64,000 bases of DNA from Sphaerolaimus hirsutus (taxonomy: Eukaryota > Nematoda > Chromadorea > Monhysterida > Sphaerolaimidae): NCBI GenBank assembly GCA_964036195.1, contig OZ038452.1, positions 30,081,785 to 30,145,784 on the forward strand, written 5' to 3'. Shown piece after piece: positions 3,365 through 25,390 of this stretch. Made by a program: the position numbers and the translations under genes. A model generated the notes under the pieces. It was not told where the DNA came from and did no database searches. It was given only the letters and a program-made list of their open reading frames with translations. Position 1 is the stretch's first letter; the number at the start of each line of letters is the position of its first letter.

Positions 3365-3460
3365 TGCAAATGGCGATGTGGACAGGTGCTCTGTCTTGGC
3401 ACTGTTCCAAACATTTGCTGTAACCAGAACTGATTGTTTCATGTGAAGTGATCTTTTTGT
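3365..3460 (+). other. Exon-like segment 4, left-arm copy
   Basis: After TTTCACTCACAG the sequence encodes LANGDVDRCSVLALFQTFAV, then a stop follows. Related copies are at 22,385-22,475 (minus) and 32,875-32,950 (plus, reading ANGDVGKCSILALFQTFAVA). It carries the same C-x-x-LAL-x-Q motif as segments 2 and 3. Confidence 0.4.
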
Positions 3461-3912
3461 TCTGATTTATATCTCATTTGTGGGTATGATTTCTCTCATT
3501 TGTGATACTGTTTTTTGCTACTTTATTTGAACCGCATGAGGTGCTTTCCTTTTCTGCTTGTGTCTGTGCTTATGTTTCACATGGGTTCCTAGTATGGTGT
3601 CAGGAAAAATTTTGACAGAGAAGGTAAAAAAATTCAGCAGCTGGTGAATGAGAAGCAAAAATGTAAAAAAATTGTCCTGATAAAAATAGGAACTTGACAC
3701 CTTAGTTCTTGTGATGTAAAGGCACAGGGCACCCATTGCAATCTTCAGGGGTGCCATGCCGGTGCCGGTGCCATTCTTTTCAGAATAGCACCGGTGCCGG
3801 TGCGGTGCCATTTTTTTGCCGGTGCCAAAGGTGCTAGCACCAGGGCAAAGTAAAAGGCACCGGGAAAGGCACTGGCCAAGGCTTCATGTGCTGTGCAATT
3901 TTGTCCATAGTA

Positions 3913-4339
3913 CCGTATTACCTCTAATATAAGGTATACTTTATATCTTTTCGTCAGATTTTTAGAGCTTTAAGTTATACCTTATATTAGCGGGTAGCTT
4001 ATATTAGAGGGTACCTTCAATTTTTTTCACCAGATTTTTGTGTGGTCAACAATTCAATGTTTCTCGTCGAGTGAATAGTGCCGCTGCATTCTGACACATT
4101 TTTCAGTGGCGGAAGTCGACAAAGAGTTATCGCAGTGCCTTTCGGCACCATTTTCATCATTTTCTGCCATGTTTAGCAACCGTCTGTATTATTTTGTGCG
4201 TTTTGGCACGCAGCCAGCTGTGCCTTATATTAGAGTGTACCTTATATTTATTTCGTCGCGTTCAAAATAGCCAAAAGTTATACCTTATATTAGAGGGTAC
4301 CTTATATTAGAGGGATGCCTTATATTGGAGGTAATACGG
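3913..4339. mobile_element. G-type CCGTAT MITE
   Basis: Ends CCGTATTACCTCTAATATAAG and the complement, with TA on both sides (3911-3912, 4340-4341). Internal blocks repeat the terminal motif, and the centre resembles the element at 13,605-14,231. Confidence 0.88.
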
Positions 4340-4866
4340 TATGTGCTTATTCATATTTAAAAAAAAACAGCGATATATTTACCCAACCGTTTTTGCCTAT
4401 TTTGTAAACCTCCCATCAAATAAATATACCTACTGTGAAATCCATTATATACCGATTACGTGATCTGATGAGCGAATCTTAAAATTTTGTTGAATTTTAA
4501 ATCATTTTTATATTTTATATTTATCTTACTTGTTTGTTCAAAATTTGTTGTCAGTTTATGACAGAGATACTTCCATTCTCTGTACAGCAACGACTCCGAT
4601 CAGTAGACAATAGTGGCTATGGACATTGCAGTGAATAAAATATTTCATCTTTCATTTGTAATCATTGTAATTGCTTCATAAAAGTGATTGCCACATTATT
4701 CTGATCATTTTAAGTGCTCAACCATCAAAATCGGTTGAAAATTCATGGAAATATGCACTTCCAAAGGTGAGACCACTGAGAAACTGCCCGATATTTACTT
4801 CAGAAATTCCAGCCCGGTGCGGTGCCTTTTGGTGCTAGCACCGGCAACCCGCTGGTGCTCTTCGGT

Positions 4867-5658
4867 GGGCCAGGCCTCCTACGCACAAACGGCCGGCGCG
4901 CACAAACGCCCGGCACGCACAAAATTGAGCCCGCCACACACAAATGCCCGGTACTCACAAATCTGAGGCTCTGTGCGTACCGGGCATTTGTGTGTACCGG
5001 TCATTTGTGTGTACCAGTCATTTGTGCGTACCGGGCAGGGGATTTTCACACGCCCCCCCACTTTGTGTTTGCCCCCCATACATGAGCACCTGGATGCTTC
5101 CAAAAAAACTCTGGCGTCATGGCATTTGGGGGAATTTGGTGCTGGCCGCAATTTTTTTTAATTACCAGCGGCAAACTGCCAGCGTAATGATCGCTTTATT
5201 TTGAAATAAAGTATTTGTTTGTCACATGACTTTTCATTTTATTACTCGAAAAAGGTGCCAAAAGCGGTAAAAAGATTGAAAAGTCAAATGAAAAACTTTT
5301 TAAAAAGTGTTTTTAGCCCATTTTTGCAGTTAAGTAGACAAAATCCTTCAGTATGAGAATTTTTTACAATCCTAATCCCGAAAAATGCCAATCCCAAGCC
5401 CGATGCCGATCCTGAAAGGTCAATCCCAATCCCAAAATCTCAAAAGCCAATCCCGATCCTGAAAAGTCAATCCCGTTTGAACCTAGGAGCCAGCCAGGAT
5501 ACAAGCCCCGCCCCCACATATGACTGGCCCGTACAAACGATTGGCACGCACACAGCTACAGTTTTGTGCATACCGGGCGTTTGTGCGTACCCGACTTTCA
5601 TTTTGTGCGTGCCAGGCATTTGTGCGCGCCGGGCATTTGTGCGTACAGGTGTGGAGCC
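4867..5658. mobile_element. hAT-like element rich in CGCACAAACGCCCGG
   Basis: It interrupts the GGCACC-type element. The flanks are TCTTCGGT (4859-4866) and CCTTCGGT (5659-5666), a 7/8 TSD. The copy at 10,838-11,306 has the uninterrupted sequence, which confirms the insertion. Inverted arms carry repeated CGCACAAACG and CGTTTGTGCG units. Related to 27,342-27,921. Confidence 0.82.
5340..5484. mobile_element. Terminal fragment related to TAGGGTTCAAACGGG
   Basis: CCAATCCCGAT-type repeats end in GTCAATCCCGTTTGAACCTA, matching the terminus of the element at 243-815. No partner end was found. Confidence 0.5.
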
Positions 5659-6203
5659 CCTTCGGTGCCGGTGCCATTTTTTCCAAAAGGCACCGGTGCG
5701 GGTGCGGGTCGGTGCCATTTTCTGGCCGGTGCCCCAGGGTGCCAGGTGCCCTTTTCATGCGTTGTCAAAGGTGCCGGTGCGGTGCGGTGCCATTTTTCCC
5801 GGTGCCTTTAACATCACTACTTAGTTCCTTGTTCCTTGTGATAGTACTTAATTTTTCAACTGGTTTTTATTTATTCAAAATCAATGGTTTGCCTGATTTT
5901 TAGTGTTAAAAATCATGCCTGATTTTTAGTGTTAAAAATCAAAGGCAAAATTTCTGGTAGACATGCACTAGGTATTTTGCAGTTTTTTGTGTGCAATTCT
6001 GTCAGTCCACCTGACACTGAGGGTCAGGTTGACATGAGGGTCGTTTTCATTGGTTTTATAGTCTTACTGACAAATCTTACATTCTACCATGCTATAATAG
6101 GCTGTAAAGTGTTATTGTAAAATTTGAAATCCATTTTCCACACGCTTTTGAAGTATGAAAAGTCAATCTTACATTTCTACAATCTACCATGCGATAATAG
6201 GCT

Positions 6204-6607
6204 GTGGGGGGGGGTTCGCGGTGGTTCAATATAGGCTTTTCCAAGGTAGGAAGGAAGAAAGTGAAAAAATCGCTAAAAGTAGGTTAAAAATGGGTATATA
6301 AGCACATATAGTACACAAATACCTGAAAATAGGCAATGAAACACATGGAATAGTGAAGTTCAAGGTGAAAAACTATAAAAAGGTATGAAACTTGGTGATT
6401 TTGAGTGAAAATTAGGGCAAAATCTCTCAAAAATCACTCTAGATAGGTAGATGGATGGCTGATTGGGGATATTTAGATAGCCAAACATTTTGCCTCTGGG
6501 ATAGATAAATAGATAGCTGATCAGCCTCTGGGATAGATAGACAGCTGGCGGATTTTGGGGTATAGCCCCCCAACCCCCCCCCCCCCCCACTAAACCTCTG
6601 GTGATCA
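6204..6607. mobile_element. CTATCTATC-rich hAT-like element, left-arm copy
   Basis: Subterminal features match 1,151-1,657: a G-run beside a C-run, GATAGATAGCT repeats and CGCTAAAAGTAGGT. The right-arm partner is 20,944-21,750, which is enlarged by an A-type MITE. Confidence 0.65.
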
Positions 6608-7537
6608 CTGTCAAGCAGTTAATGTTAGATGATCAATGTTAGTGGCTAATGTCAAGTTGGAAATGCCAAGTAATGACTTTTGGGTGATAAATGTCAAGTA
6701 ACAACTTTCAGGTGAAAAATGTTTTTTCAGATGATGAAGGCATTGATCACCGCAGGTAGAACCCCATGCTCACGTTTACCAGAGTTGTTAAAAGTACTGA
6801 ACTTTTTTCAAAGTAAACTTAAATGTAAAGTTCACTGAGCAACCCTGAGTACAGAAAACGTGAACTATTTTTTTAATACTTTTACACAGCGTAAAATGTG
6901 AGTAAAATACTTTTTTTTCAAGGAAAACGTAAAATTGAGTATTTTTTCTCACAGAAAACGTAAAACTGAGTATTTTTCTCATATAAAATGTTAAAGTGAG
7001 TATTCTTCCCAAATCCCAATTTTGTTGCTGAATTTAGAATGCATCTTAATGTTTGCATCTAAAAATAATGATTTTAATAAAGTGTTTTTCTAGCAGTGAA
7101 ATGAAAATTTTAATATAAAAGTCCTAAAAAATTCAAAAACGTTTTCAGAATTTTTTGTTTGCCATCGTTAGTGTATGCTGCGAGGGGGGGGGATACGGCC
7201 GCTCATTGACGCGCTCCGCCTGGTGCTCTTCGAGACGATGAGCACTGGGCATCGCACTATGACCACCGGGTAAACATGAGCATAGGTACAGGCCCATCAC
7301 CGCACTTTTACCACTTTACATTGATCACATGGAAATTGGGAAATGGCAAGTTATAATTTCAGGTGATATCGATGTCAAGTGGAAAAAGTCAAGTGATCAA
7401 GACAAGCCCATAATGTCTAGTCAGAAATGGCAAGTGATAGCTTTCTTTTATCTTTCCTCGAAAAAAAGTTGCTGTACTTGTATGTATACTTTTTGAAAGT
7501 ACTTGAGTACAGGAAACATTTCTGATATGGGTTTACC
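6608..7537. other. Arm sequence without recognised element
   Basis: AT-rich DNA is shared with 20,010-20,940. It includes CTGAGTACAGAAAACGT-type motifs also seen around 38,240 and 39,100. A short GC-rich block at 7,195-7,265 reads LIDALRLVLFE in one frame and faintly recalls exon-like segment 1. No gene is supported. Confidence 0.4.
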
Positions 7538-8338
7538 ATATTTCCTTGAATTACCCCCCGGGAGGGTTTATTTTTTCAGAGTGGAAATTTTAAGGGGGGT
7601 CAAACGAGGGGGGTTATTATTTCGCCAAAAATTTTTTGAAATCCCAATACTAAATCGCTGTTTGTTACATACACAGACATCGAAAAATGCAACAAAAACT
7701 GCCAAAAATGCAACAAAAACTGCCATTTATAAGACTATATAGACTTATATAAGTATGTAGACAGTATAAACCCTAGACAGTATAAACCTTGTTCTAACAT
7801 AACATAGGTACCATATATCCTCAAATACATCCCCCGGGGAGTTTTTTTTATCACAAGCTTTTGAGGGGGGGGGGTTATTTTATTATCAGTATTTCCAGTA
7901 AAATGTTTGATAAATTTACTGCACAAATGGGGTAAATTGTGTAACATAAATGATACCTATGTAAGAATACAAAATTCACAATTCAAGCAATGAAAACAAT
8001 GTTAGTGAACTCTAGCTGCAAGATATTACATATTGAATACATAAAACGTTTTTTGTTAATCTAAAATGTTATGAAATGTTTCTACCCATCAAAGTGGGTG
8101 GGGAGTTATTCGAGGGGGGAGTTGTTTTTTCCTCACACTTACAAGAGAGGGGGGAGTTATTCGAGAGGGGGGACTTATTCGAGGATATACGGTAGTCATT
8201 GTTTTAACGTATGTTCTGTGTTTCCTGGATCACAGTACGCAGCTTTTGTCAACTACGTTCTGTATACACTGAATTTGGGGGGGGGTTAATAAATTCATAG
8301 TGCCCATTTTGAGGGGGGTATTTCAAGGAAATATGGTA
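7538..8338. mobile_element. A-type MITE carrying a nested C-type MITE
   Basis: Ends CCATATTTCCTTGAATTAC and GTATTTCAAGGAAATATGG, with TA on both sides. The interior matches the full-length A element at 59,643-60,066. A C-type element sits at 7,811-8,192. The right-arm counterpart is 15,062-20,007. Confidence 0.88.
7811..8192. mobile_element. C-type CCGTAT MITE
   Basis: Ends CCATATATCCTCAAATAC and GAGGATATACGG, flanked by TA (7809-7810, 8193-8194). Nested in the A-type element. Its counterparts are 15,368-15,758 and 18,792-19,182. Confidence 0.85.
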
Positions 8339-8801
8339 TTAAGGTTTTTCCAAGGCATGGAAGGGAGAAAATGGTGAGAAAAGCTTTATGAGGTGAAAAT
8401 TCGAAGTGAATGTGAAAGTGAAGTGTAAAAAGTGATTTTGAGTGTGAAAATTGGCACAAAAAAATGAAAATGACTGATTTTGAGTTGAGTTGTGGCAAAA
8501 TTTCTCAAAAATACTCAGTTTTATGTTTTCCGTGGAAAATTTTTGTACTTATGTTTAAAAACAGTACTTTGAAAAATGTTTGGTACATTTGACAACTCTG
8601 ATTGGGTTCACGTCAATGCAATTTGAAATATTTCAGCGTTCGCATTGGAACTTTCAGATTTCGCGATCGAGATCTGGACTGCTGAATCCTGGGAATTATT
8701 GGGATGCTGGAAAAGATGGTTAAAACAGTAAGTTTTCATTTGTGTTTGAGAAAGTGAAAATACAGTATTTTTTAATAACTGTAAACCTGACAATTGTGAT
8801 G

Positions 8802-8868
8802 CTGTATTTCCTTGAAATACCCGTGGGGGTAATTATTTGAGGGTGGGGGGTCTTTCAAAGAAATACGG
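8802..8868. mobile_element. Minimal A-like MITE
   Basis: CTGTATTTCCTTGAAATAC faces CTTTCAAAGAAATACGG with almost no interior (67 bp). The right-arm partner is 14,520-14,601. Confidence 0.7.
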
Positions 8869-9078
8869 TATTTTGATTTATTCTGTTATACTCGGCAGAC
8901 ACGATACTCTACAAACAGATAGGAGTTACGTACCTTTTTTTCAAAGTCAAATATCTGTGTCAAACTGAAAATTTTAAGGACCGATTTTTCACAACAGAAT
9001 TAAGAAAATAATAGATTTGCCTGTATGCCGGCTGACCCTACTGTTTTCAAGTATAATAGGTACCTCCAAATGATATAT

Positions 9079-9992
9079 TAGGTTGTAAACTAAATAACCT
9101 TAATTTTTTGCGATTTCACATTCATGCGTCCCATTTAGTTGTACATTGGCGGAAATTAATGCTGTTCCTCGTTGGGTTGTTGGGGTTGGGGTTATGACGA
9201 AATTTTTTTGTTTCCTCGAATAATCCCCCAGTCCCGAGATAAGGGGGGTCTATAAAAAGGTGGTTGTTTTGAATGGCCGATCTGGATGTTGGACGGATAT
9301 TTGAAGCTCCATACATCAGCCATTTCTGGGACGATTTGGGTCGATCAACGCTTAAAATGATCAGTAAAACTTGCGGATTCCATTTTTGTGGTCGGATTAG
9401 TGATGTCAGTTAAGCAAACCTTCTCCCATTGGAGATGCTTAAAGGATATGCATATGGAGAAGTTGCATTCCCGCCGCTTTATGCAGTTACCTTTTCCTAT
9501 AGTTAGGAGGCTAAATTTCAAAGTGCTATAACGTTTGATTGGAAAGAGATATTTAAAAAAATTTTTGCGTCAGATGAATTCTCTTTATCTAAAGTTTATG
9601 ATAGCATGGTCAGAAACACAAATTTCTGGTGTTGAAAAACCGGGTCAAATCAGCATACGAAATTCAAACATCACTAATCTGACCACAAAAATGGAATCTG
9701 TGGGTTTCACCGATCATTTTAAGTGTTAACTGATTCAAATCGGCCTGGAAATAGCCGATTTATGGAGCTTCAAAGTCAACATCCAGATCGGATTTTTCAA
9801 AATGACCACCTTTTTATAGACCCCCATTATCTCGGGACTGGGGGATTATTCGAGGAAACAAAAAGATTGCGTCATAGCCCCAACTCCAAACTCCAACATA
9901 CTCGAACGGCATTAATGTCCGCCAATGTACAACAGAATGGGACGCATGAATGTGAAATCGCAAAAAATTAAGGTTATTTAGTTTACAACCTA
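9079..9992. mobile_element. Long-TIR element absent from the other arm
   Basis: Ends TAGGTTGTAAACTAAATAACC and its complement, with arms extending about 330 bp and a 250-bp centre. The flanks are ATAT (9075-9078 and 9993-9996). The right arm at 14,303-14,325 has the uninterrupted GATATATTTATG. A TA TSD with TTAGG...CCTAA ends fits equally well. No transposase frame. Confidence 0.9.
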
Positions 9993-10073
9993 ATATTTAT
10001 GTAAACAAATCAGTGCAGTAAGGGTAAACAAATGTATGTTAGGTAGGTACCTACCGATTTACCTACGTACTCA

Positions 10074-10718
10074 CCGTGTTACCTCCAATTGTAGGCATAC
10101 CTTCAATAAAAAGTCTAAGCATCTAATTGAATGTACAGTTTTGGCTTTAAAATACATTCCGTATTTCCTCGAAATACCCCCCCCCCCTCGAAATACCCCC
10201 CCTCAAAATGGACACTATGAACTTATAAACCCCCCCCCCTCGAAATACCCCCCCCCAAATTTAGTGTATAGAGAACGTAAATGACAAAGGCTGCGGTTTG
10301 TCATCCCGGCAATGCAGAACACACGTTAAAAACGATGACTCTGTTATGTGAGAACAGTGTTTGTACGTCTACACACTTATAAATGTCTTTAGAGTCTTAT
10401 AAATGGCGATTTTTGTTGCATTTTTCGACGTCTGCGTACGTTTCAGACGACCTTTTAGTACTGGGATTTCAAAAAATTTCTGGCGAAGTAATAAACCCCC
10501 CCTCGAAATACCCCCCCCCTCGTTAAACCCCCCTCAAAATTCTCACACTGAAAAAATAAACCCCCCGGGGGTATTTCGAGGAAATACGGTAACTCCAATG
10601 GAAGGCGCAGCTGGTTGTCTGGCAAAACGTGTACAATTGTAAACGTGTAAAATCGTGAAAATGGTACCGAAGGGCACCCAGACAACTCTGTTTCGACCTG
10701 TATTAGGTAGAGCTGTTG
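10074..10718. mobile_element. G-related element, left-arm copy
   Basis: Starts CCGTGTTACCTCCAATTG. The interior shares with 3,913-4,339 a block of the form GTGCC-TTCGG-ACCATTTTCA and CAGCTG-GCC. It is split by the A-type MITE at 10,159-10,589. The partner is 13,605-14,231. Confidence 0.65.
10159..10589. mobile_element. A-type CCGTAT MITE
   Basis: Ends CCGTATTTCCTCGAAATAC and complement. The right TSD is TA (10,590-10,591) and the left is TT, probably mutated. The empty site in the right arm reads ACATAACTCC near 14,145. Confidence 0.9.
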
Positions 10719-10721
10719 CTA

Positions 10722-10837
10722 ATTCCGCAAATTTAGAAGTGAGAAGTAAAATGGCAAAAAAACGAAGTGAAATGGCAAGTAAATTGGCAAAAGCGAAGTA
10801 AAAAAATAAAAAGTCATTTTCCTTGGCTTTTGCCAAT
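10722..10837. repeat. Half of the GAGAAGTGAGAAGTAAAATGG hairpin
   Basis: Matches one side of the palindrome at 13,820-14,020. It is cut by the hAT-like insertion starting at 10,838. Confidence 0.7.
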
Positions 10838-11306
10838 TAGTGATGTTAAAGGCACCGGGAAAAATGGCACCGCACCGCACCGGTACCTTTGCCAACGCAT
10901 GAAAAGGGCACCTGGCACCCTGGGGCACCGGCCAGAAAATGGCACCGCACCGCACCGGCACCGGTGCCTTTTGGAAAATATGGCACCGGCACCGAAGGGC
11001 ACCGGCGGGTTGCCGGTGCTAGCACCGAAAGGCACCGCACCGGGCTGGAATTTCTGAAGTAAATATCGGGCAGTTTCTCAGTGGTCTCACGTTTAGAAGT
11101 GCATATTTCCATGAATTTTCAACCGATTTTGATGGTTGAGCACTTAAAATACTCAGAATGATGTGGCAATCACTTTTATGAAGCAATTACAATGATTACG
11201 AATGAAAGATAAAATATTTAATTCACTACAATGTCCATAGCCACTATTGTCTACTGATCGGAGTCGTTGCTGTACAAAGAATGGAACTATCTCTGTCATA
11301 AACTGA
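10838..11306. mobile_element. Second GGCACC-type hAT-like element, truncated by gap
   Basis: Begins TAGTGATGTTAAAGGCACC and is the reverse complement of the right part of 3,709-5,819, without the 4,867-5,658 insertion. The other end is lost in the gap. The preceding 8 bp are TTGCCAAT. The right arm has uninterrupted TTGGCAAAAGCC at 13,893-13,904. Confidence 0.85.
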
Positions 11307-11506
11307 NNNNNNNNNNNNNNNNNNNNNNNNNNNNNNNNNNNNNNNNNNNNNNNNNNNNNNNNNNNNNNNNNNNNNNNNNNNNNNNNNNNNNNNNNNNNNN
11401 NNNNNNNNNNNNNNNNNNNNNNNNNNNNNNNNNNNNNNNNNNNNNNNNNNNNNNNNNNNNNNNNNNNNNNNNNNNNNNNNNNNNNNNNNNNNNNNNNNNN
11501 NNNNNN
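11307..11506. other. Assembly gap (200 N)
   Basis: A run of exactly 200 N, probably a fixed-size placeholder. The left flank is inside a repeated hAT-like element. The right flank does not continue that element, so the join is not proven by sequence. Confidence 1.
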
Positions 11507-13604: not shown

Positions 13605-14231
13605 TATTTTTACAGTTAATTGATTTCATCACTTTTTTGAAGTTTAAATTAGAAAGTACCTTTTATTAGCAGGTACCTTCTATTGTTCTCATCAGATTTT
13701 GAAAGATTCAAATAACAGTGAACCACTCAATTCATTTGATCAAACTCATCAAATTCAATATTTAACATCAAATTCAATATTTAATATCAAATTCAATATT
13801 TAAAAAAATGGTGAACCAGTAGCCAGTTTCGCAAATTGAGAAGTGAGAAGTAAAATGGCAAATGCGAAGTGAAATGAGAAGTGAATAGAGAAGGAAATTG
13901 GCAAAAGCCAAGGAAAATGACTTTTTATTTTTTTACTTCGCTTTTGCCAATTTACTTGCCATTTCACTTCGTTTTTTTTTGCCATTTTACTTCTCACTTC
14001 TCAATTTGCGAAATTAGCAACATACCTACCTAATACAGGTCGAAACAGAGTTGTCTGGGTGCCCTTCGGTACCATTTTCACGATTTTACACGTTTACAAT
14101 TGTACACGTTTTGCCAGACAACCAGCTGCGCCTTCCATTGGAGTTATGTATTTTAAAGCCAAAACTTTACATTCAATTAGATGCTTAGACTTTTTATTGA
14201 AGGTATGCCTACAATTGGAGGTAACACGGTA
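13605..14231. mobile_element. G-related element, right-arm copy
   Basis: The right end is CAATTGGAGGTAACACGG (to 14,231). The left side contains GTACCTTTTATTAGCAGGTACC, as in the G-type element at 3,913. The left terminus is decayed. The hairpin at 13,820-14,020 lies inside it. Confidence 0.6.
13820..14020. repeat. GAGAAGTGAGAAG hairpin element
   Basis: CGCAAATTGAGAAGTGAGAAG is mirrored by CTTCTCACTTCTCAATTTGCG with a short centre. This is a near-perfect 200-bp fold-back. Another copy is at 38,600-38,804. Confidence 0.85.
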
Positions 14232-14519
14232 AGTATGTAAATAGGTAGGTACCTACCTAACATACATAACATATTTGTTTACCCTTACTGCACTGATTTG
14301 TTTACATAAATATATCATTTGGAGGTACCTATTATACTTGAAAACAGTAGGGTCAGCCGGCATACAGGCAAATCTATTATTTTCTTAATTCTGTTGTGAA
14401 AAATCGGTCCTCAAAATTTTCAGTTTGACACAGATATTTGACTTTGAAAAAAAGGTACGTAACTCCTATCTGTTTGTAGAGTATCGTGTCTGCCGAGTTT
14501 AACAGAGTAAATCAAAATA

Positions 14520-14601
14520 CCGTATTTCTTTGAAAGACCCCCCACCCTCAAAATTTGCACTGTGAAATAATTACCCCCACGGGTATTTCAAGGAAATACA
14601 G
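14520..14601. mobile_element. Minimal A-like MITE, right-arm copy
   Basis: CCGTATTTCTTTGAAAGAC faces GTATTTCAAGGAAATACAG. Partner of 8,802-8,868, slightly longer in the middle. Confidence 0.7.
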
Positions 14602-15130
14602 CATCCCAATTGTCAGGTTTACAGTTATAAAAAAAATACTGTACTTTCTTAAAAACAAATGAAAACTTACTGTTTTAACCATCTTTTCCAGAATCCCAAT
14701 AATTCCCAGGATTCAGCAGTCCCGATCTCGATCGCGAAATCTGAAAGTTCCAATGCGAACCCTGAAATTTTTCAAATTGCATTGACGTGAACTCAATCAG
14801 AGTTGTCAAATGTACCAAACTTTTTTCAAAGTACTGTTTTTAAACATAAGTACAAATATTTTCCACAGAAAACATAAAACTGAGTATTTTTGAGAAATTT
14901 TGCCACAACTCACCTCAAAATCAGTCATTTTCATATTTTTTTGCCAATTTTCACACTCAAAATCACTTTTTACACTTCACTTTCACATTCACTTCGAATT
15001 TTCACCTCATAAAGCTTTTCTCACCATTTTCTCCCATCCATGCCTTGGAAAAACCTTAATACCATATTTCCTTGAAATACACCCCCTCTCGAAATACCCC
15101 CCTCAAAATGGGCACTATGAATTTATTACC

Positions 15131-15345
15131 CCCCCCCCCCAAATTCAGTGTATAGTATACAGAACGTAGATGACAAAAGCTGCGTTCAGAATTTATTACC
15201 CCCCCCCCCCAAATTCAGTGTATAGTATACAGAACGTAGATGACAAAAGCTGCGTTCAGAATTTATTACCCCCCCCCCAAATTCAGTGTATAGTATACAG
15301 AACGTAGATGACAAAAGCTGCGTTCTGTGATCCAGGAAACGCAGA
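15131..15345. repeat. 68-70 bp tandem repeat, three units
   Basis: Units start at AAATTCAGTGTATAGTATAC at 15,141, 15,211 and 15,279, each ending in ATTTATTACC plus a C-run. The left arm has one unit only, so the expansion is specific to the right arm. Confidence 0.9.
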
Positions 15346-15797
15346 ACATACGTTTAAACAATGACTACCGTATATCCTCGAATAAGTCCCCCCTCTGGAA
15401 TAACTCCCCCCTCTCTTGTGAGTGTGAGGAAAAAACAACTCACCCCTCGAATAACTCCCCCCCACTTTGATGGGTAGAAACATTTCATAACATTTTACAT
15501 TAACAAAAACCGTTTTATGTATTTTATATGTAATATCTTGCAGCTATTCACTAACAATGTTTTCATTGCTTGAATTGTGAATTTGTATTCTTATAAAACA
15601 TATCATTTATGTTACACAATTTACCCCATTTGTGCAGTAAATTTATCAAACATTTTACTGGAAATACTGATAAAAAAATCCCCCCCTCGAATAACTCTCC
15701 CCTCAAAAGCTTCTGATAAAAAAATAACTCCCCGGGGGACTTATTCAAGGATATATGGTATGTTATGTTAGAACAAGGTTTATACTGTCCAGGGTTT
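15141..15797. repeat. Target duplication, left copy
   Basis: 657 bp matching 18,566-19,221. From the third tandem unit onward both copies are exactly 519 bp with no difference seen. It contains a complete C-type MITE. The left arm carries the same sequence once. Confidence 0.92.
15368..15758. mobile_element. C-type CCGTAT MITE
   Basis: Ends CCGTATATCCTCGAATAAG and CAAGGATATATGG, with TA flanks. It was present in the target before the non-LTR insertion and was duplicated with it. Confidence 0.88.
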
Positions 15798-18558
15798 CAA
15801 TTCAATTCAATTCTTCATATACCACTCAGTCTTCGCGAGGCAGAAGGGTACAAAGTACAAAAATACAAAGTGAAAATAACGCGGCGGAAGTCTAACTAAC
15901 ATAACATACGGTAAAAACAACGCGCGCCAACAACTCCAATAGGCGAAGATACAGCCAATACGATCAAGTAAACAATTAGGAGCGCTAAATGAAAATACAC
16001 TACATAGTAAGATCATGTGAACGTGGCACGTAAGGGACCGCGACATAAGCAGTCCCCCTGTGCCACTAAGCGTTTACATACATATAAATGCGCGGTAACA
16101 GTAAATAAGGCATTGGTTTCCATATAGGTTTCGAGGTTTGTTTCTTTAGTCCAGAAGTGAGATCTAAGTGAAGGTATATACTCGTAGTATCAATTATCAG
16201 AGGGTATCAAGTTCACCAGTTTACTGAAGATCGTACCACGTCATCTTGACAGGAAAGAGCCAGCACTCTGCCCCCCCCTTCCACCTTCGTTGCTCTACGC
16301 GAGCCTTCGGTAGGGAGGAAGTTTTTTGGCACGAGAAAGATAGAGGTTGAAGAACGATGGGCCGTAGCCCGCAAAGCGACTACTGCTAGTAAGTGAGCTA
16401 ACTAGAGAATAAAACAGGTTAAAACCCCTACTAGTGCCTATAATGGTCCGCAAAGTTCCGACATGTGTTTATCCAAGTCTCGTATTTTCCTGCTAAAAGT
16501 GGCTCTCGCAGCTTGACACGTTGCCGATTCCAAGAGATGTCTAAGATCGGTTTTAGCCTTTTTGTCGCAGCCTTCTGCACAGCAGTTTTTCTTCAATGAC
16601 CTCAGTGTCTCCGTCCTCCAAGCAACTATCGTGTCTGACACAAAGTTTTCTAATATGTGATCTCCCGTTAGCCAGAAGTCGAAACCGACCCTCCGACAAA
16701 ACGGGCAGCATGTCCAAAGATCCCTAACATTACTCGAGTTTATCTGTCTTGTCCTAATAAAAAGGCCGTGTCGTAGCATGAACCAGTCTAAGTCGTTTGA
16801 TGTGAGTGTTCTCGGGCATATAGGTGTCACATTTGCACCTACAACCCGTTCGAGTTTGCATGTCTTTCCCCGTTCTTTACCTACCCTGCTGAGACTGTTC
16901 CATGAAGCATACTTTGCCATATCCTTTAATCGTGTTTTGCTGGGTGTCGTGGACATATCAGTTATGGATAGCCATGTCTTTGCCGTATCGGCTCTCCCAG
17001 CAATGCTATTCTTGCGTTTGCTAACCCCTTGACCTTTTGCCCATCTTTGTGCTGCGGTTCGAGTCGTCGTGGAGGCCTTGCCACTTCTCAGATATTCGTC
17101 CATTTGGACCATACACAGCGCGTACCAGCCTGTTGTCGTTATCGTGTCCGCTTCAATTGCAAGTAATCTGTTTGATAGATGTCTGGGCGCCCTCATTTGT
17201 TCTCTGTAGAGTGACATCTCAATCGATGTCAGCTTGTCCCTAGCCAGGTGACTCAGTCCGACAATTTCTACCCCATAAAACACCTTGGACATTGCGTAAA
17301 GTGTCCAGAGTCTTTGCGTGGCCCACAGCGGCTGCATGCTATAGGCTGCAATTTCAGCCACCAGCACGCGTGCTGTATGACCCCATTGTATGTAGAGTGT
17401 TTTTTGTTTATCAAATGGGTCGCGATGACTAGTGATCGTCAAGCCGAGGTATTTAGTTTCATTTACTTCTGAAACCAACTGCGGCATTTTGTTATTGTCG
17501 TATCCTAGCTTCCATTTATTTGTTTCAGACGCTGTTTGTCTGAAGTGTAGAACGTGACTTTTTTGCGGACTTATGGCAACCCCCCAGACCCATGCCCATT
17601 CTGAAAAAACGTCCATCAGAGCTTGCAGATCTGCTCCTTTGTTGGCCATTAAAACAATGTCGTCCACAAAAAACACCGCTGGGATCCATTTGCCTTCCAA
17701 ATTCGCCCCCTTATTTGTCCTTTCTAGGCTTGTCCGAAGGTCTGCCATGTATAGCACATATAGGCTGGGCGAAAGGCAGCACCCCTGCCTAACCCCCAGC
17801 TTATAATCCAAGAGTTTCGTTGTAACATGCGCATATTGCAAATAGCACTTTTGATTGTCGTATGTTGATTCGAGTGCATCTACAAATCGTTTTGGGTAGC
17901 CAAAATGGGTCAATTTCCTCCAAAGTCTGTCGCGCGGAACTCTGTCGAATGCTTTTACTGCATCAACAAAGCAACATGAGAGCTTTTTGCCGCTTGACAG
18001 ACATCCCTGGATTATGATGTGGTTATCTGTCGTTCGTCTGTGTTTCCGAAAGCCACCTTGCATGTCACCAAATCCATTGCAGTTTTCGAAGGCTGTCAGG
18101 AGACGTTTGTTTAGGACGCTACAGTACAATTTCAAAATATTACACTGTAATCCTATTGTTCGGTAATTGTTCACGTCACTCTTTGAGCCCTTTTTGTGTA
18201 GGAGTATCAGCTTGCAGGTTTTTGCTTCCGATGGGATTTCCTCCCCCTGGAACCACCCGTTGAAAATAGAACATAATATCTCCAACAGGTGGGGGCCGGG
18301 GGTTCGGAGCATCTCGTGTGATATCCCTGTTGTTCCGCTTGATTTTCTCAGCTTTAATTTCCGGCATGCAGCACTTACCTCTCCCAGGGTTAAATCATGG
18401 TGCAGGTACGATTTATCTCTAGATGTAATCGCATTGCGGAGACAGCTGTCGTCTACAATTTCTGCACTCATCGGGTTCGGGCATTGTATCCTGTTCCAGA
18501 AGTCGACTAATATCTTCTGTAAGTCTTGGATTGACGCAGCAACCTCGCCTGAGTTGAA
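15798..18558 (-). mobile_element. 5'-truncated non-LTR retrotransposon
   Basis: On the minus strand the element enters after a C-run at 18,559 and ends in a short (TTGAA)n-like tail, GAATTGAATTGAATTGAAAC (15,798-15,817). It carries one reverse-transcriptase frame and about 640 bp of 3' sequence. No LTRs, TG...CA ends or integrase are present. The two flanks are near-identical copies of the target, which fits a recent insertion. The left arm lacks the element. Confidence 0.88.
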
Positions 18559-18678
18559 CCCCCCCAAATTCAGTGTATAGTATACAGAACGTAGATGACA
18601 AAAGCTGCGTTCAGAATTTATTACCCCCCCCCCAAATTCAGTGTATAGTATACAGAACGTAGATGACAAAAGCTGCAT
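16438..18678 (-). CDS. Non-LTR reverse transcriptase ORF, 5' part replaced by target sequence
   Basis: A 746-codon open frame. Residues 1-40 are read from the flanking tandem repeat, so the native part starts at about residue 41 and the true N-terminus is missing. The reverse-transcriptase domain spans roughly 92-400. It contains QGGFRKHRRTTDNH (207-220), catalytic-type FVDAVKAFD (237-245), GVRQGCCLSP (295-304) and FVDD (337-340), with phenylalanine in place of the usual tyrosine. A C-terminal CCPFC...H cluster (657-674) resembles the zinc-binding region found after many LINE reverse transcriptases. No apurinic or restriction-like endonuclease is seen, perhaps because of truncation. The frame is uninterrupted, consistent with a young copy. 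The clade cannot be fixed from sequence alone. Confidence 0.9.
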   Translation of the reverse strand: MQLLSSTFCILYTEFGGGVINSERSFCHLRSVYYTLNLGGFNSGEVAASIQDLQKILVDFWNRIQCPNPMSAEIVDDSCLRNAITSRDKSYLHHDLTLGEVSAACRKLKLRKSSGTTGISHEMLRTPGPHLLEILCSIFNGWFQGEEIPSEAKTCKLILLHKKGSKSDVNNYRTIGLQCNILKLYCSVLNKRLLTAFENCNGFGDMQGGFRKHRRTTDNHIIIQGCLSSGKKLSCCFVDAVKAFDRVPRDRLWRKLTHFGYPKRFVDALESTYDNQKCYLQYAHVTTKLLDYKLGVRQGCCLSPSLYVLYMADLRTSLERTNKGANLEGKWIPAVFFVDDIVLMANKGADLQALMDVFSEWAWVWGVAISPQKSHVLHFRQTASETNKWKLGYDNNKMPQLVSEVNETKYLGLTITSHRDPFDKQKTLYIQWGHTARVLVAEIAAYSMQPLWATQRLWTLYAMSKVFYGVEIVGLSHLARDKLTSIEMSLYREQMRAPRHLSNRLLAIEADTITTTGWYALCMVQMDEYLRSGKASTTTRTAAQRWAKGQGVSKRKNSIAGRADTAKTWLSITDMSTTPSKTRLKDMAKYASWNSLSRVGKERGKTCKLERVVGANVTPICPRTLTSNDLDWFMLRHGLFIRTRQINSSNVRDLWTCCPFCRRVGFDFWLTGDHILENFVSDTIVAWRTETLRSLKKNCCAEGCDKKAKTDLRHLLESATCQAARATFSRKIRDLDKHMSELCGPL

Positions 18679-18770
18679 TCAGAATTTATTACCCCCCCCC
18701 CCAAATTCAGTGTATAGTATACAGAACGTAGATGACAAAAGCTGCGTTCTGTGATCCAGGAAACGCAGAA
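18559..18770. repeat. 68-70 bp tandem repeat, duplicated copy
   Basis: Three units begin at 18,566, 18,634 and 18,703. One base differs from the left copy (CTGCATTC instead of CTGCGTTC near 18,677). Confidence 0.9.
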
Positions 18771-19221
18771 CATACGTTTAAACAATGACTACCGTATATC
18801 CTCGAATAAGTCCCCCCTCTGGAATAACTCCCCCCTCTCTTGTGAGTGTGAGGAAAAAACAACTCACCCCTCGAATAACTCCCCCCCACTTTGATGGGTA
18901 GAAACATTTCATAACATTTTACATTAACAAAAACCGTTTTATGTATTTTATATGTAATATCTTGCAGCTATTCACTAACAATGTTTTCATTGCTTGAATT
19001 GTGAATTTGTATTCTTATAAAACATATCATTTATGTTACACAATTTACCCCATTTGTGCAGTAAATTTATCAAACATTTTACTGGAAATACTGATAAAAA
19101 AATCCCCCCCTCGAATAACTCTCCCCTCAAAAGCTTCTGATAAAAAAATAACTCCCCGGGGGACTTATTCAAGGATATATGGTATGTTATGTTAGAACAA
19201 GGTTTATACTGTCCAGGGTTT
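18566..19221. repeat. Target duplication, right copy
   Basis: Counterpart of 15,141-15,797. Continues without a break into TATACTGTCTACAT, which is the original flank also found in the left arm. Confidence 0.92.
18792..19182. mobile_element. C-type CCGTAT MITE, duplicated with target
   Basis: Identical in extent to 15,368-15,758, offset by 3,424 bp. Confidence 0.88.
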
Positions 19222-19235
19222 ATACTGTCTACATA

Positions 19236-19477
19236 CCGTATTTCCTCAAAATACCCCCCGGGGGTTTATTGTTTCAGAGTGAGAATTTTGAGAGAAAAAC
19301 GTGAAAAATGCAACAATAACCACCATTTTTAAGTTTTTACAGCCTTATATAAGGATGTAGATGGTATAAACGATGTTCTAACATAACACAGTAAGTGTTT
19401 TGAACGTATGTTATGCATTTCCCGAACCACAAATCCATAGTGCCCATTTTGAGGGGGGGTATTTCGAGGAAATACGG
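19236..19477. mobile_element. A-type MITE, 242 bp, with TA TSD and empty site
   Basis: Ends CCGTATTTCCTCAAAATAC and CGAGGAAATACGG. TA at 19,234-19,235 and 19,478-19,479. The left arm at 7,741-7,762 has the site without the element. A close copy, reversed, is at 41,363-41,603. Confidence 0.95.
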
Positions 19478-19483
19478 TACTTA

Positions 19484-19815
19484 CCGTATTTGCTTGAATA
19501 ATTCCCCCCTTTGAATAATTCCCCCCCTCGAATAATTCCCCCGTGTAAGACGGGTGAGGAAAGAATAATTCCCCCCCTCGAATAATTCCCCCCTTTAAAG
19601 ATTTGATCAGTTGTTTGTGCCAAATATTAACAAAAATGGCACGTTCTTGTGTAAATAAAGCTTATTTCATTAAATGTGCTGATAGAAACATGCTTGAAAA
19701 TTTTGACGAAACAATAATTCCCCCCCTCGAATAATTCCCCCCCTTGAATAGTTCCCCCCTCAAAAAAGTCTGACGAAATAATAATCCCCCAGGGGGATTA
19801 TTCAAGCAAATACGG
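19484..19815. mobile_element. B-type MITE, 332 bp, with TA TSD and empty site
   Basis: Ends CCGTATTTGCTTGAATAATTC and complement. TA at 19,482-19,483 and 19,816-19,817. It lies 6 bp after the preceding A-type element. Removing both and one TA each restores the left-arm sequence exactly. Confidence 0.95.
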
Positions 19816-20943
19816 TATATAAGTCTATATAGTCTTATAAATGGCAGTTTTTGTTGCATTTTTTCGATGTCTGTGTATGTAACAAACAGCAATTTAGTAT
19901 TGGGATTTCAAAAAATTTCTGGCGACATAATAACCCCCGTCGTTTAATACCCCTCAAAATTTCCAATCTGAAAAAAACCCGCCGGGGGGTAATTCAAGGA
20001 AATATGGTAAACCCATATCAGAAATGTTTCCTGTACTCAAGTACTTTCAAAAAGTGTACATACAAGTACAGGAACTTTTGTCGAGGGAAGATAAAAGAAA
20101 GCTATCACTTGCCATTTCTGACTAGACATTATGGGCTTGTCTCGATCACTTGACTTTTTCCACTTGACATCGATATCGCCTGAAATTATAACTTGCCATT
20201 TCCCACTTTCCATGTGATCAATGTAAAGTGGTAAAAGTGCGGTCATGGGCCTGTACCTATGCTCATGTTTACCCTGTGGTCATTGTGCGATGCCCAGTGC
20301 TCATCGTCTCGAAGAGCACCAGGCGGGGCGCGTCGATCAGCAGCCGCACCCCCCCCCCCCCTCGCAGCATACACTAACGATGGCAAACAAAAAATTTGAA
20401 AACGTTTTTGAGTTTTTTAGGACTTTTATATTTATTTCACTGCTTAAAAAACACTTTATTAAAATCATTATTTTGAGATGCAAACATTAAGATGCATTCT
20501 AAATTCAGCAACAAAATTGGGATTTGGGAAAAATACTCACTTTAACATTTTATACGAGAAAAATACTCAGTTTTACGTTTTCTGTGAGAAAAAATACTCA
20601 GTTTTATGTTTTCCTTGAAAAAAAAGTATTTTACTCATGTTTTACGCAGTGTAAAAGTATTTAAAAAATACTTCACGTTTTCTGTACTCAGGGTTGAGTA
20701 AAAATAAAATACTTACCGTTTAAGTTTACTTTGGAAAAAGTTCAGTACTTTTAACAACTCTGGTAAACGTGAGCATGGGGTTCTAGCCGCGGTGATCAAT
20801 GCCTTCATCATCTGAAAAAACATTTTTCACCTGAAAGTTGTTACTTGACATTTATCACCCAAAAGTCATTAATTGACATTTCCAGCTTGACATTAGCCAC
20901 TAACATTGATCATCTAACATTAACTGCTTGACAGTGATCACCA

Positions 20944-21750
20944 GAGGTTTAGTAGGGGGGGGGGGGGGGGTTGGGGGGCTACACCCCAAAATCCGCCAGC
21001 TGTCTATCTATCCCAGAGGCTGATCAGCTATCTATCTACAGTATTTCCTCGAAATACCCCCCCCCTCTCGAGACCACTATGAAACAATCACCCCCCCTCG
21101 AAATACCCCCCCCCCCAGATTGAGTGTAAAGAGAACGTACATGCCAAATACTGCAGTTTGTGTTCTGCGTAGTGCAGAACACACGTAAAAACAATGTCGG
21201 AATCACGTTAGAACAGTGTTTATACCATCTACGTACTAATATTAGTCTACATAACCTTATAAATGGCGGTTTTTGTTGTATTTTTCGACGTCTGCGTACG
21301 TTTCAGACGACAATTTCGTACTGGGATTTAAAAAATTTTCTTGTGAAATAATAACCCCCCCCCTCGAAATACCCCCCCACCTCGTTTACCCCCCCCCCTC
21401 TCGGGACCACTATGAAACAATCACCCCCTGGGGGGTATTTTGAGGAAATACGGTATCCCAGAGGCAAAATGTTTGGCTATCTATCCCCAATCAGCCATCC
21501 ATCTACCTATCTAGAGTGATTTTTGAGAGATTTTGCCCCAATTTTCACTCAAAATCACCAAGTTTCATACCTTTTTATAGTTTTTCACCTTGAACTTCAC
21601 TATTCCATGTGTTTCATTGCCTATTTTCAGCTATTCGTGTACTTTATGTGCTTATATACCTATTTTTCACCTACTTTTAGCGATTTTTTCTCTTTCTTCC
21701 TTCCTACCTTGGAAAAGCCTATATTGAATAACCGCGAACCCCCCCCCCAC
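20944..21750. mobile_element. CTATCTATC-rich hAT-like element, right-arm copy
   Basis: Partner of 6,204-6,607. Interrupted by the A-type MITE at 21,039-21,453. Confidence 0.65.
21039..21453. mobile_element. A-type CCGTAT MITE
   Basis: Ends CAGTATTTCCTCGAAATAC and GAGGAAATACGG with TA on both sides. The left arm (6,495-6,530) has the uninterrupted GATAGATA sequence. Confidence 0.9.
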
Positions 21751-22384
21751 AGCCTATTATCGCATGGTAGATTGTAGAAATGTAAGATTGACTTTTCATA
21801 CTTCAAAAGCGTGTGGAAAAATGGATTTCAAATTTTACAATAACACTTTACAGCCTATTATAGCATGGTAGAATGTAAGATTTGTCACTAAAAGACTATA
21901 AAACCAATGAAAACGACCCTAATGTCAACCTGACCCTCAGTGTCAGGTGGACTGACAGAATTGCACACAAAAAAATGCAAAATACCTAGTGCATGTCTAC
22001 CAGAAATTTTGCCTTCGATTTTTAACACTAAAAATCAGGCAAACCATTGATTTTGAATAAATAAAAACCAGTTGAAAAATTAAGTACTATCACAAGGAAC
22101 AAGGAAAGGAACCAAGGTGTCAAGTTTCTATTTTTATCAGGACAAATTTTTTTACCTTTTTGCTTCTCCTTCTCCAGCTGCTGAATTTTTTTACCTTTTC
22201 TGTCAAAATTTTTCCTGACACCATACTAGGAACCCATGTGAAACATAAGCACAGACACAAGCAGAAAAGAAAAGCACCTCATGCGGTTCAAATAAAGTAG
22301 CAAAAAACAGTATCACAAATGAGAGAAATCATACCCACAAATGAGAGATAAATCAGAACAAAAAGATCACTTCACATGAAACAA

Positions 22385-22475
22385 TCAGTTCTGGTTACAG
22401 CAAATGTTTGGAACAGTGCCAAGACAGAGCACCTGTCCACATCGCCATTTGCAAGCTGTGCATGAAATGTGTTGC
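22385..22475 (-). other. Exon-like segment 4, right-arm copy
   Basis: Minus-strand partner of 3,365-3,460, including the GGCACTGTTCCAAACATTTG core. Confidence 0.35.
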
Positions 22476-22716
22476 AGTGAAAAACAGGTAAGTAAAATAG
22501 AAGAAACACGGTGTGGTGGCACCACCAACATCTCGAGCATTCAGGCAAATTTCATCACCTAAGTAGCTTGCTAATTAGAAACTATTCAACCACGACAACG
22601 AGGCATCAATTCCGCAGGTAGACAAGTGACGGGTAAAGGTTAAGAGGTCACAATAGATACATCAAGTGACAAGTGAAGTAATGAAGTAAGACAATCAAGC
22701 CCGTAAAGTGGCAAGT

Positions 22717-23153
22717 ATCGTATATCCTCGAATAAGACCCCAGGGGAGTTATTTTTTCGTCTGAGTTTTTGAGGGGGGACTTATTCAAGGGGGAGGAGTT
22801 ATTCAAGGGAGGGAGTTATTTTTTCCTCAGAAACTTGGACTGAATTCATCGTATGAATGCATTCTGTCAACTCATGTAATCCATGTATTCAACAGTTAAA
22901 CAACAACAAAAAGGTGTTTATACACTGCGTACATGTCATGTAAATGCTGTCGCAGCCTTACGTTAGCATTCTTTTGTATTTTCATCGATCATTTTTGTAA
23001 ATATACATGCAAATTTTTCACACAGAGGGGGACTTATTCAAGAGGGGGGAGTTATTCGAGGGAGGGAGTTATTTTTTCGTCAGTGTTTTTGAGGGGGGAG
23101 TTATTCAAGGGGGAGGAGTTATTCGAGGGGGGGTCTTATTCGAGGATATACGG
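22717..23153. mobile_element. C-type MITE with empty site
   Basis: Ends TCGTATATCCTCGAATAAG and CGAGGATATACGG with TA flanks. The left arm at about 3,215-3,222 reads GAATTACTTGCC without it, confirming a TA TSD. Confidence 0.92.
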
Positions 23154-23194
23154 TAATTCCAGATAAAAAATTTTTTTTTCATCTGACTTGACTT

Positions 23195-23395
23195 ACCACT
23201 TGCCTTGTCATCCCGCACTTGCAGAATTGCAAGCCAAAATTCAACGGAAAGCAACCCATGGGAAAGCAACCGAACAAACCAGGCAAATGGTGGAATGGCG
23301 TCATCTGGTACTGGCACAGTGCCAAAACTCGGCACTGCCCCCAGGGGCGTCGGTCGATGCATGCGGAACCGATCTGCATCCACCTATGGGTAGGA
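23195..23395 (-). other. Exon-like segment 3, right-arm copy
   Basis: Minus-strand partner of 2,985-3,170. The frame DAIPPFAWFVRLLSHG is preserved. Confidence 0.35.
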
Positions 23396-23689
23396 AGATA
23401 CAAAGGAGTGTTTTGTAAGTTCAGGGGAGAACTGCTAACACACAGACAAAATTGGCTGTGGAATTTTTAGGGGCTGTGGAATTTTTACGGAATTTTTTTC
23501 ATTTTTTGACCCCCCGGATATATCAAAATTGAATTGCGCACCCCCCCACATATAAAATTTTTTTTTTAAGCGCATATTTATGACAATGCCAAAAATGGTC
23601 CTAACTCAAATTTGAAAATATTGTAAATCAGTACTTTTAGAAGCACACCCTTCATGTACAGGTATATCAAACAAATGCCAGTACCTCGT

Positions 23690-24190
23690 GATGTTATATA
23701 TAGCCACAGAAAGGCTGTGGAGCCGTGGGATAGCATTATAAGTGGTGATTTCTAAGTGGTGATTTCTGTCAAAAATATCCATTTTTGTAGACTTGTTACG
23801 TATATCACCTGTTGTCGAATGTTTGTGACTTCAAGTCAAGTTTTGCATGGAAAAGCACTTATACAAGGTTATAATATAAGGCTAGTCCATTGACAGTGAT
23901 GGATCACACTGTAGAAGTAGGTGGGAGCACATTCGCTGGATATCATATGCAACACTAACATAGCACAGCTTATCATGACACAATAGCATGAACAAATGGA
24001 AGCTTTCACACAAAAAAATGCCTCAAAACCAATGAAAACAACCACAAATGGTAAAGTGTATGTGAAATTGAGCGCTTGCGCGCAAAAAAATTGCAAAATA
24101 CCTAGTACATAGTACAAAATATTTGGGCTGTTTTAAAAAACCCAGTTTCAATGCCTTTTTCATTCAAAAAAACACTGGCCATCCCTAGTT
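23690..24190. mobile_element. Decayed TAGGGTTG-family element
   Basis: GGCTGTGGAGCCGTGGGATAG, CGCTTGCGCGC and CAAAATACCTAGTAC match the interior of 36,646-37,745. The right end is GGCCATCCCTA. The left end is not found. Absent from the left arm. Confidence 0.55.
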
Positions 24191-24324
24191 ACAATATTTA
24201 TGACCCAACTTCTAAATCTGTATACAAATTCTTTCAAAACCCCACCAAACACAACAAAACAAACCCAAAACAACCACAACCAAACAAAAACCAACCAATT
24301 CAGTGAGCACACGGCCAACGGCCA

Positions 24325-24440
24325 CAAGACCCAGCAGGAAGGTCAACTGCAGAGGAGATGACAGCAGCTGGCAGAGTGCCAAAGCACAGCACTCAGCACA
24401 TCCACAAACACCAGCTGCGATTGAAGGTTGTAAATACTTA
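24325..24440 (-). other. Exon-like segment 2, right-arm copy
   Basis: Minus-strand partner of 1,725-1,835, with about 95% identity by eye. Confidence 0.35.
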
Positions 24441-24624
24441 TGCTAGAGATAAGAGGAGACAAAATGGGTGGTTCACTAGGAAGATAAACGACACCACTTC
24501 AGAGGTATTAATAAACATAACAAGTATTCATAACGGAAGTCAATTATTCAGTTTGCAGCAGGGTTCAGTAGGAGGGTTACTCCCTCTAAAAGCTCAAAAT
24601 GTTGACAACATAGATAAATAGCTG

Positions 24625-25390
24625 GAGCATTTGGGGCAGCAGTTTAGAAGGGGGGTTGGGGAACCCCCTAATCCGCTAGCTATCTATCTATCCCGGAGAA
24701 AAATTTTTCGGCTATTATCTCCTAAACCCATTGCCCCAATTATCACTTAAAATCGCTCATTTTCATACGTTTTTATAGTTTTTCACCTTCAAAATCGTTA
24801 TTTCATGTGTTTCCTTTACTATTTTCAGCTGTTTGTGTACTATATATGCTACCTATTTTTCACCTACTTTTAGCGATTTTTTCTAGCGATACCATTTAGG
24901 GTCTTTACGATCAGGGACGTATCCAGCATTTTTGAGCGGGGGGGGGGGGCTGCTTGTTTACGAAGGCCGAGCCCCCTAAAATTTTAGCTTCATAGTGGCG
25001 CAATGGCACCAGCGCCATGGAACGCTGTATATGTATGTAAATATACATACGAAAACAGTAAAAAGCACAACATTGAGTGTATTTATAACGATTTGCGGTC
25101 ACATGGAGCAAATCTGATGACAATACCTTGTCTGGTGAAAAATGCGCGCTAGCGCGCAAAAATTTTTACGCTGACGTCGAAAAAGTCGCATTTTCCGGTT
25201 TCACCCCGGGAAGGGGGGGGGGGCTGCAGCCCCCCCGCCCCCCCCTGGATACCATCACCTATATATCAAACCCCCAAATTTTGTTCAGCTATCTATCCCT
25301 CCGGAGGAGCGATTTACTATCTATACGAACCCCGACTGGAGTCCAAATCTACAAAACCCCTGGTTTGGGGAGGCTAACCCCCATATTAGA
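24625..25390. mobile_element. CTATCTATC-rich element interrupted by CAGGGACG element
   Basis: Family hallmarks lie on both sides of the insertion at 24,912: CTATCTATCCC, then TTCAGCTATCTATCCCTCC near 25,288. It pairs with 178-1,020 and shows that the left arm continues beyond the window. Confidence 0.6.
24912..25252. mobile_element. CAGGGACGTA-family element
   Basis: Starts CAGGGACGTATCCAGC. The interior contains GCGCGCTAGCGCGC and CCCCGGGAAGGGG. It stops at CCCTGGATAC without the terminal GTCCCTG, so the right end is deleted. Confidence 0.75.

What the first reader, a model, noticed from the sequence alone, without database searches (positions are those of the whole stretch)
15141..19221. 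Non-LTR retrotransposon flanked by a ~657-bp target-site duplication
Sequences of 657 and 656 bp on either side of the element are nearly identical, with one mismatch and C-run length differences seen. The last 519 bp have no indel. The left arm carries this DNA once. LINE duplications are usually tens of bases or less, so staggered cleavage hundreds of bases apart, or a repair-based route, would be unusual.
Basis: seen in the sequence. Interest (0 to 1): 0.8.

Follow-up and report, generated by a model that had tools for sequence, protein, structure and literature searches.

The report
Retrotransposon with unusually long target duplication
A recently inserted, shortened copy of a jumping gene (a LINE-type retrotransposon) sits between two nearly identical 660-base copies of its landing site; long duplications like this are rare but already reported from experiments with other LINEs, so this looks like an uncommon outcome of a known process and not a new mechanism.

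Summary
A 2.76-kb 5'-truncated non-LTR retrotransposon (15798-18558, minus strand) lies between direct repeats of 664 and 663 bp (15134-15797, 18559-19221) that differ by one substitution and two C-run lengths. A second, inverted copy of the locus in the window (8311-7753) has the repeat once and no retrotransposon, and is collinear with both outer flanks. So the duplication is derived and accompanies the insertion. The 3' end has a (GAATT)n tail and a primer end near GTTT/a. The 5' end lacks the endonuclease part and joins in or beside a C-run. Best reading: target-primed reverse transcription with the second-strand break about 660 bp away, giving a long target-site duplication. Precedent: a 1,228-bp TSD in 1 of 25 ZfL2-2 insertions in wild-type DT40 cells (PMC2666801), and kilobase TSDs of human L1 in repair-deficient cells (PMC5223499). 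The key test, TSDs of other family members, could not be run: the genome search did not complete in 13 of 13 tries, and the held relatives find one RT locus in the window. An assembly error is not excluded. A rare event of a known kind; a family-specific mechanism is unsupported.

The parts
15798..18558 (-). 5'-truncated non-LTR retrotransposon (LINE), 2761 bp; 3' end at low coordinates with (GAATT)n tail, 5' truncation at high coordinates
   Evidence: single copy in the window by blastn
16438..18555 (-). uninterrupted reverse-transcriptase frame, 705 aa plus stop; RVT_1 at residues 121-374; endonuclease part missing (alignment starts at residue 439 of the 1202-aa relative P0001)
15134..15797 (+). 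target-site duplication, copy next to the LINE 3' end (664 bp)
   Evidence: 661 identical columns, 1 mismatch, 2 C-run gaps
18559..19221 (+). target-site duplication, copy next to the LINE 5' end (663 bp)
15134..15325 (+). three tandem units of about 68-70 bp inside the left copy; three also in the right copy at 18559-18749; one in the empty arm
15367..15759 (+). ~393-bp MITE-like segment (my label, from its inverted ends ACCGTATATCCTCGAATAAGTCCCCC...GGGGGACTTATTCAAGGATATATGGT) lying wholly inside the duplicated DNA
   Evidence: sequence; 15366-15392 matches 15760-15734 in reverse complement, 92.6%
7753..8311 (-). empty-site counterpart in the other arm: one D, no LINE, collinear with left flank 14309-15118 and with the right flank 19222-19236 and 19842 onward
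15129..15140 (+). C12 run (G12 on the minus strand) at or inside which the LINE 5' junction falls; 7 Cs stand at 18559-18565

Best explanation
[quoted passage not shown] The endonuclease nicked the plus strand at about ...CCAGGGTTT/A (placed to within 2-3 nt, because the tail shares letters with the target). That 3' end primed cDNA synthesis on the (GAATT)n tail of the LINE RNA, and synthesis stopped after ~2.76 kb, before the endonuclease part was copied. The cDNA end was then joined to a minus-strand break about 660 bp away in or beside a G12 run, by a distant second nick or by capture of a pre-existing or replication-linked break. Filling in both strands left the 660 bp between the two breaks on either side of the element. 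Shown: element, missing endonuclease part, tail, two copies of D, empty counterpart, high identity of the copies. Inferred: the order of events and the cause of the distant break.
For: D copies differ by 1 substitution in 662 aligned letters. The empty counterpart has D once and is collinear with both outer flanks. The duplicated block abuts the LINE at both termini. The 3' terminus is a (GAATT)n microsatellite next to a T-rich primer end, about GTTT/a; similar sites (CTTT/a, GTTT/g) stand in the L1 insertion tables of PMC5223499. The reading frame is open throughout, as a recent insertion should be. Relatives P0001 and P0003 carry an endonuclease domain upstream of RT that is absent here. Precedents, from passages: 1 of 25 ZfL2-2 insertions in wild-type DT40 had a 1,228-bp TSD. 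In NER-deficient human cells the median L1 TSD was 1,495 bp, and in HeLa TSDs over 100 bp never exceeded 10% of events. PMC2912911 says of an earlier HeLa study that extremely long TSDs were among the alterations seen with 5'-truncated L1.
Against: 660 bp is far above the clade peaks of 3-15 bp quoted in PMC4245944, where 37 human L1 inserts in DT40 cells included no long TSD. PMC2912911 adds that the radical HeLa alterations were considered peculiar to HeLa cells, and itself found an excess of short TSDs with 5'-truncated L1. No read evidence, no second assembly and no other family member was available. The 5' junction lies in or beside a homopolymer C-run, where assembly error is easiest. 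A scaffold gap of 200 N lies about 3.6 kb away.
Confidence: 0.75

Rival explanations
1. Assembly artefact: the true allele carries the LINE beside a single D, and the second D was added by a false join at the C-run.
For: The 5' junction is in or beside a C-run. A scaffold gap of 200 N lies at 11307-11506. The two arms may be two haplotypes joined head to head, which would mean that this assembly mixes alleles.
Against: Mixing haplotypes should give D copies that differ like the arms: 109 substitutions in 3357 aligned letters, about 3.2%, over five segments. The D copies differ by 1 in 662. Neither junction contains N. The 3' junction looks like a natural LINE tail (inferred, no second copy seen), so the false join would have to be the 5' one.
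Confidence: 0.12
2. Two steps: the LINE inserted with a short TSD at the right end of D. Later an illegitimate exchange with the empty allele joined the LINE interior to the start of D, truncating the LINE and adding a second D.
For: Gives the same final structure and also fits nearly identical D copies.
Against: Needs a second independent event and heterozygosity at that time. 5' truncation is already normal for LINEs (established knowledge). This is an argument from economy, not a test.
Confidence: 0.06
3. The LINE family, or this host, habitually makes long TSDs, as the rDNA-specific R9 element does (126 bp).
For: R9 of rotifers is a precedent for a long stagger. Host repair state can shift the whole TSD distribution.
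Against: Only one copy could be examined; tblastn with the held relatives finds one RT locus in the window. Nothing here suggests site specificity, but that too rests on one copy.
Confidence: 0.07

Closest known systems
Long-TSD (L-TSD) insertion of zebrafish ZfL2-2 in DT40 cells (Suzuki et al. 2009, PMC2666801; passages seen)
   Same: Non-LTR retrotransposon insertion with a TSD of more than a thousand bp (1,228 bp) as a rare outcome (1 of 25) in wild-type cells
   Different: L2-clade element in a cell assay; here a genomic copy of an unassigned clade with 660 bp
Long-TSD human L1 insertions in nucleotide-excision-repair-deficient cells (PMC5223499; passages seen)
   Same: T-rich/A first nick, TSDs from 5 bp to over 5 kb; a distant second nick is proposed, as speculation, by the authors
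   Different: Cultured human cells lacking XPA, XPC or XPD; here the repair state of the host is unknown
R9 rDNA element of bdelloid rotifers (126-bp stagger, as cited in PMC6895275; passage seen; the original paper not seen)
   Same: Non-LTR element with a stagger far above the usual 10-20 bp
   Different: R9 is rDNA-specific; here no sign of site specificity in the one copy, relatives with an APE-like endonuclease, and a far longer TSD
L1-mediated tandem duplication in tumours (PMC7058536; passages seen)
   Same: A short L1 at the join of a direct duplication, explained by cDNA joining to a break on a sister chromatid
   Different: Megabase scale and somatic; here 660 bp

Membership tests
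Non-LTR retrotransposon (LINE), APE type | Reverse transcriptase domain of non-LTR type | tested here: met
   RVT_1 E=1e-31; the 10 solved-structure matches are R2, LINE-1 ORF2 and entries named reverse transcriptase-like protein or RNA-directed DNA polymerase
Non-LTR retrotransposon (LINE), APE type | Apurinic-type endonuclease domain upstream of RT | tested here: inconclusive
   Missing from this truncated copy. Of 4 relatives scanned, P0001 (33% identity) and P0003 have Exo_endo_phos above the cut-off (P0001 only just, 25.5 against 24.5 bits), P0002 only a sub-threshold Exo_endo_phos_2 match, P0005 none
Non-LTR retrotransposon (LINE), APE type | No LTRs; microsatellite or poly(A) 3' tail | tested here: met
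   (GAATT)n tail at 15798 onward; the flanking repeat exists once without the element in the other arm, so it is not an LTR
TPRT insertion with target-site duplication | Direct repeats of target DNA flanking the insert, single in the empty site | tested here: met
TPRT insertion with target-site duplication | T-rich/A first-strand nick at the 3' junction | tested here: inconclusive
   ...CCAGGGTTT/ATAC is compatible, but the nick is placed only to within 2-3 nt and this is a single site
Family-fixed long-TSD element (R9-like) | Same long TSD at independent insertions | not testable with these tools
   Genome search not answered in 13 of 13 tries; one RT locus in the window

The most novel reading that the evidence does not exclude
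This LINE family, or its host, regularly completes integration with second-strand breaks hundreds of bases away, perhaps captured at G-run tracts, so that long duplications with embedded MITEs are its normal product and it keeps copying neighbouring DNA.
Probability: 0.06. Interest if true: 0.65.

Novelty: new member of a known kind. Interest (0 to 1): 0.27.

Why it matters
If real, it is a clean case, with its empty counterpart in the same window, of a LINE insertion that duplicated 660 bp including a whole MITE-like element. A case in a genome assembly would show that this route also adds small segmental duplications to genomes. It does not by itself require a new mechanism.

Tried and rejected
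Rejected: chance repeat (664 bp at one substitution). LTR element: the flanking repeat occurs once without the element in the other arm, the protein matches non-LTR reverse transcriptases, and a LINE-like tail is present. LINE inserted exactly at the junction of a pre-existing D-D tandem: needs a coincidence that I put at about 1 in 660 (estimate, no call), and the empty arm shows D once. Haplotype mixing as the source of the second D: would give about 3% divergence.

Led nowhere: scans of viral contigs with six peptide patterns from the RT protein and with one 32-base 3'-end pattern found nothing; the answers say that records of the window's own genome may be left out. The protein search reported 136 relatives (120 listed; only the 7992 candidates sharing most words were scored), the best by E-value at 33% identity over 65% of the query, so neither host nor clade was identified. 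Single-strand DNA folding at the distal break gave z = -1.33, 18 of 200 shuffles folding as well. About 3.6% of positions (53 of 1489) in 14309-15797 lie in or at the edge of a C or G run of 7 or more, so the G-run link is only suggestive.

Full report
Observation. A local alignment puts the two flanking copies (D) at 15134-15797 (664 bp) and 18559-19221 (663 bp). They share 661 identical columns with one substitution and two gaps, both gaps being C-run length differences. The substitution is a G to A in the second unit of the right copy, at a CpG; the same place in the other units of both copies and in the single unit of the empty arm has G. Between the copies lies 15798-18558, 2761 bp, present once in the window by blastn.

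The element. The minus strand has a 705-residue frame without stops (16441-18555) with an RVT_1 domain at residues 121-374. The 10 solved-structure matches are R2 proteins, LINE-1 ORF2 and other entries named as reverse transcriptases. Of 136 relatives reported (120 listed, only the 7992 candidates sharing most words scored), the best by E-value, P0001, is 33% identical over 65% of the query. It has an endonuclease domain just above the Pfam cut-off, and our protein aligns from its residue 439 on. The copy therefore lacks the endonuclease part and is 5'-truncated. In sense orientation the 3' end reads ...ATGAAGAATTGAATTGAATTG then AAACCCTGG, a (GAATT)n tail. Clade and host were not identified.

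The empty site. The window holds a second, inverted copy of this region. The blocks that I take as collinear run from 10838/13896 outward to about 68/25000; all but one of them are at about 89% identity or more, the exception being 87 bp at 80%. Over five aligned segments there are 109 substitutions in 3357 letters, besides 32 gaps. The left arm has D once (8311-7768), one tandem unit in place of three, and no LINE. It continues without a break into the sequence that follows the right D copy: TTTATACTGTCTACATAC, and then, past a MITE-like block present only in the right arm, ATATAAGTCTATATAG. Order and content of the pre-insertion locus are thus known. The D duplication arose after the two arms separated. 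The D copies are about twenty times more alike than the arms, though with one substitution that ratio is rough.

How it likely works. The plus-strand primer end is about CCAGGGTTT before ATAC, i.e. GTTT/a. It is placed only to within 2-3 nt because the tail shares letters with the target. Such a site suits a T-rich/A endonuclease nick (compare CTTT/a and GTTT/g in the tables of PMC5223499). cDNA was made from the tail inward and stopped after 2.76 kb. The 5' join lies in or beside the C12 run at 15129-15140; seven Cs stand on the LINE side at 18559-18565. With the second-strand break 660 bp from the first, fill-in yields the two D copies. Whether the distant break was a nick by the element, a host nick, or a replication-linked end at the G-run cannot be told. 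53 of 1489 positions (3.6%) in 14309-15797 lie in or at the edge of a C or G run of 7 or more, so the G-run link is only a hint.

Other arm-specific insertions. In the part of the arms that I aligned (5825-10838 against 13896-22106), apart from the LINE with D and the extra tandem units, four blocks of 30 bp or more are seen in only one arm: left 10158-10590 and 9080-9997; right 19234-19816 and 21036-21456. Three have ACCGTATTTCC-type inverted ends, and the fourth (left 9080-9997) has other inverted ends. The right block 19234-19816 looks like two such elements side by side. MITE is my label; no call names them. Judged by eye from the printed junctions, duplications there are a few bases at most; at 21036-21456 the flanks are themselves repetitive and I could not tell. 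The long duplication is peculiar to the LINE event among these.

Literature. Everything here was seen as search listings and as passages found by term; no paper was read whole. PMC2666801: 24 of 25 ZfL2-2 insertions in wild-type DT40 cells had target alterations of 20 bp or less and one had a 1,228-bp TSD. PMC5223499: TSDs of L1 in NER-deficient cells ranged to over 5 kb with median 1,495 bp, against a median of 14 bp in complemented cells; TSDs over 100 bp in HeLa never exceeded 10% of events. PMC2912911: of an earlier HeLa study, extremely long TSDs were among the alterations coupled to 5'-truncated L1; these were considered peculiar to HeLa, and its own genome survey, limited to TSDs of 5-30 bp, found more short TSDs with 5'-truncated L1. 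PMC4245944: clade peaks of 13-15 bp (L1), 3-5 bp (L2, CR1) and 10-12 bp (RTE), and no long TSD among 37 human L1 inserts in DT40. PMC12016303: TSDs, counted only at 5-25 bp, in 6826 of 8673 human insertions, so longer ones would not show. PMC6895275 cites a 126-bp stagger for R9. PMC7058536 explains a megabase duplication by L1 cDNA joining to a break on a sister chromatid. A 660-bp TSD is therefore rare but within what is on record.

Limits. The genome search did not complete in 13 of 13 tries, so no other family member was measured; that test remains open. An assembly fault at the C-run is possible. Haplotype mixing is unlikely as its cause, because the D copies are far more alike than the arms. 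The arms themselves meet head to head around a 200-N gap and may be two haplotypes joined in the scaffold. In that case the empty arm is the allelic empty site and the insertion is heterozygous, which would not change the reading of D.

Verdict. The interpretation as a long TSD is well supported; the claim of a distinct mechanism is not.

Noticed in passing
68-10838 and 13896-25000: Inverted homology (about 3.2% substitutions in five measured segments, many MITE-like indels) head to head around a 200-N gap at 11307-11506: a long palindrome or two haplotypes mis-joined in the scaffold.
   Followed up: partly
19234-19816, 21036-21456, 10158-10590, 41349-41605, 59640-60066: Abundant MITE-like elements with ACCGTATTTCCTCGAAATACCCCC-type inverted ends, several present in only one of the two arms, so active after the arms separated.
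   Followed up: partly
9080-9997: A ~918-bp insertion present only in the left arm, with long inverted ends (AGGTTGTAAACTAAATAACCTTAATTTTT...), 9075-9406 against 9996-9668 at 86%; looks like a different DNA transposon.
   Followed up: no
15134-15325 and 18559-18749: A 68-70-bp unit starting with a C-run is triplicated in the right arm but single in the left arm; the triplication probably predates the D duplication because both D copies carry it.
   Followed up: yes
46561-47093: Repeated coding-like sequence (GTRKKWHRTAPAPVLFWKKGTGTGRAPAK...) open in several frames; by eye, similar stretches at 10719-11118 and 5357-5903.
   Followed up: no
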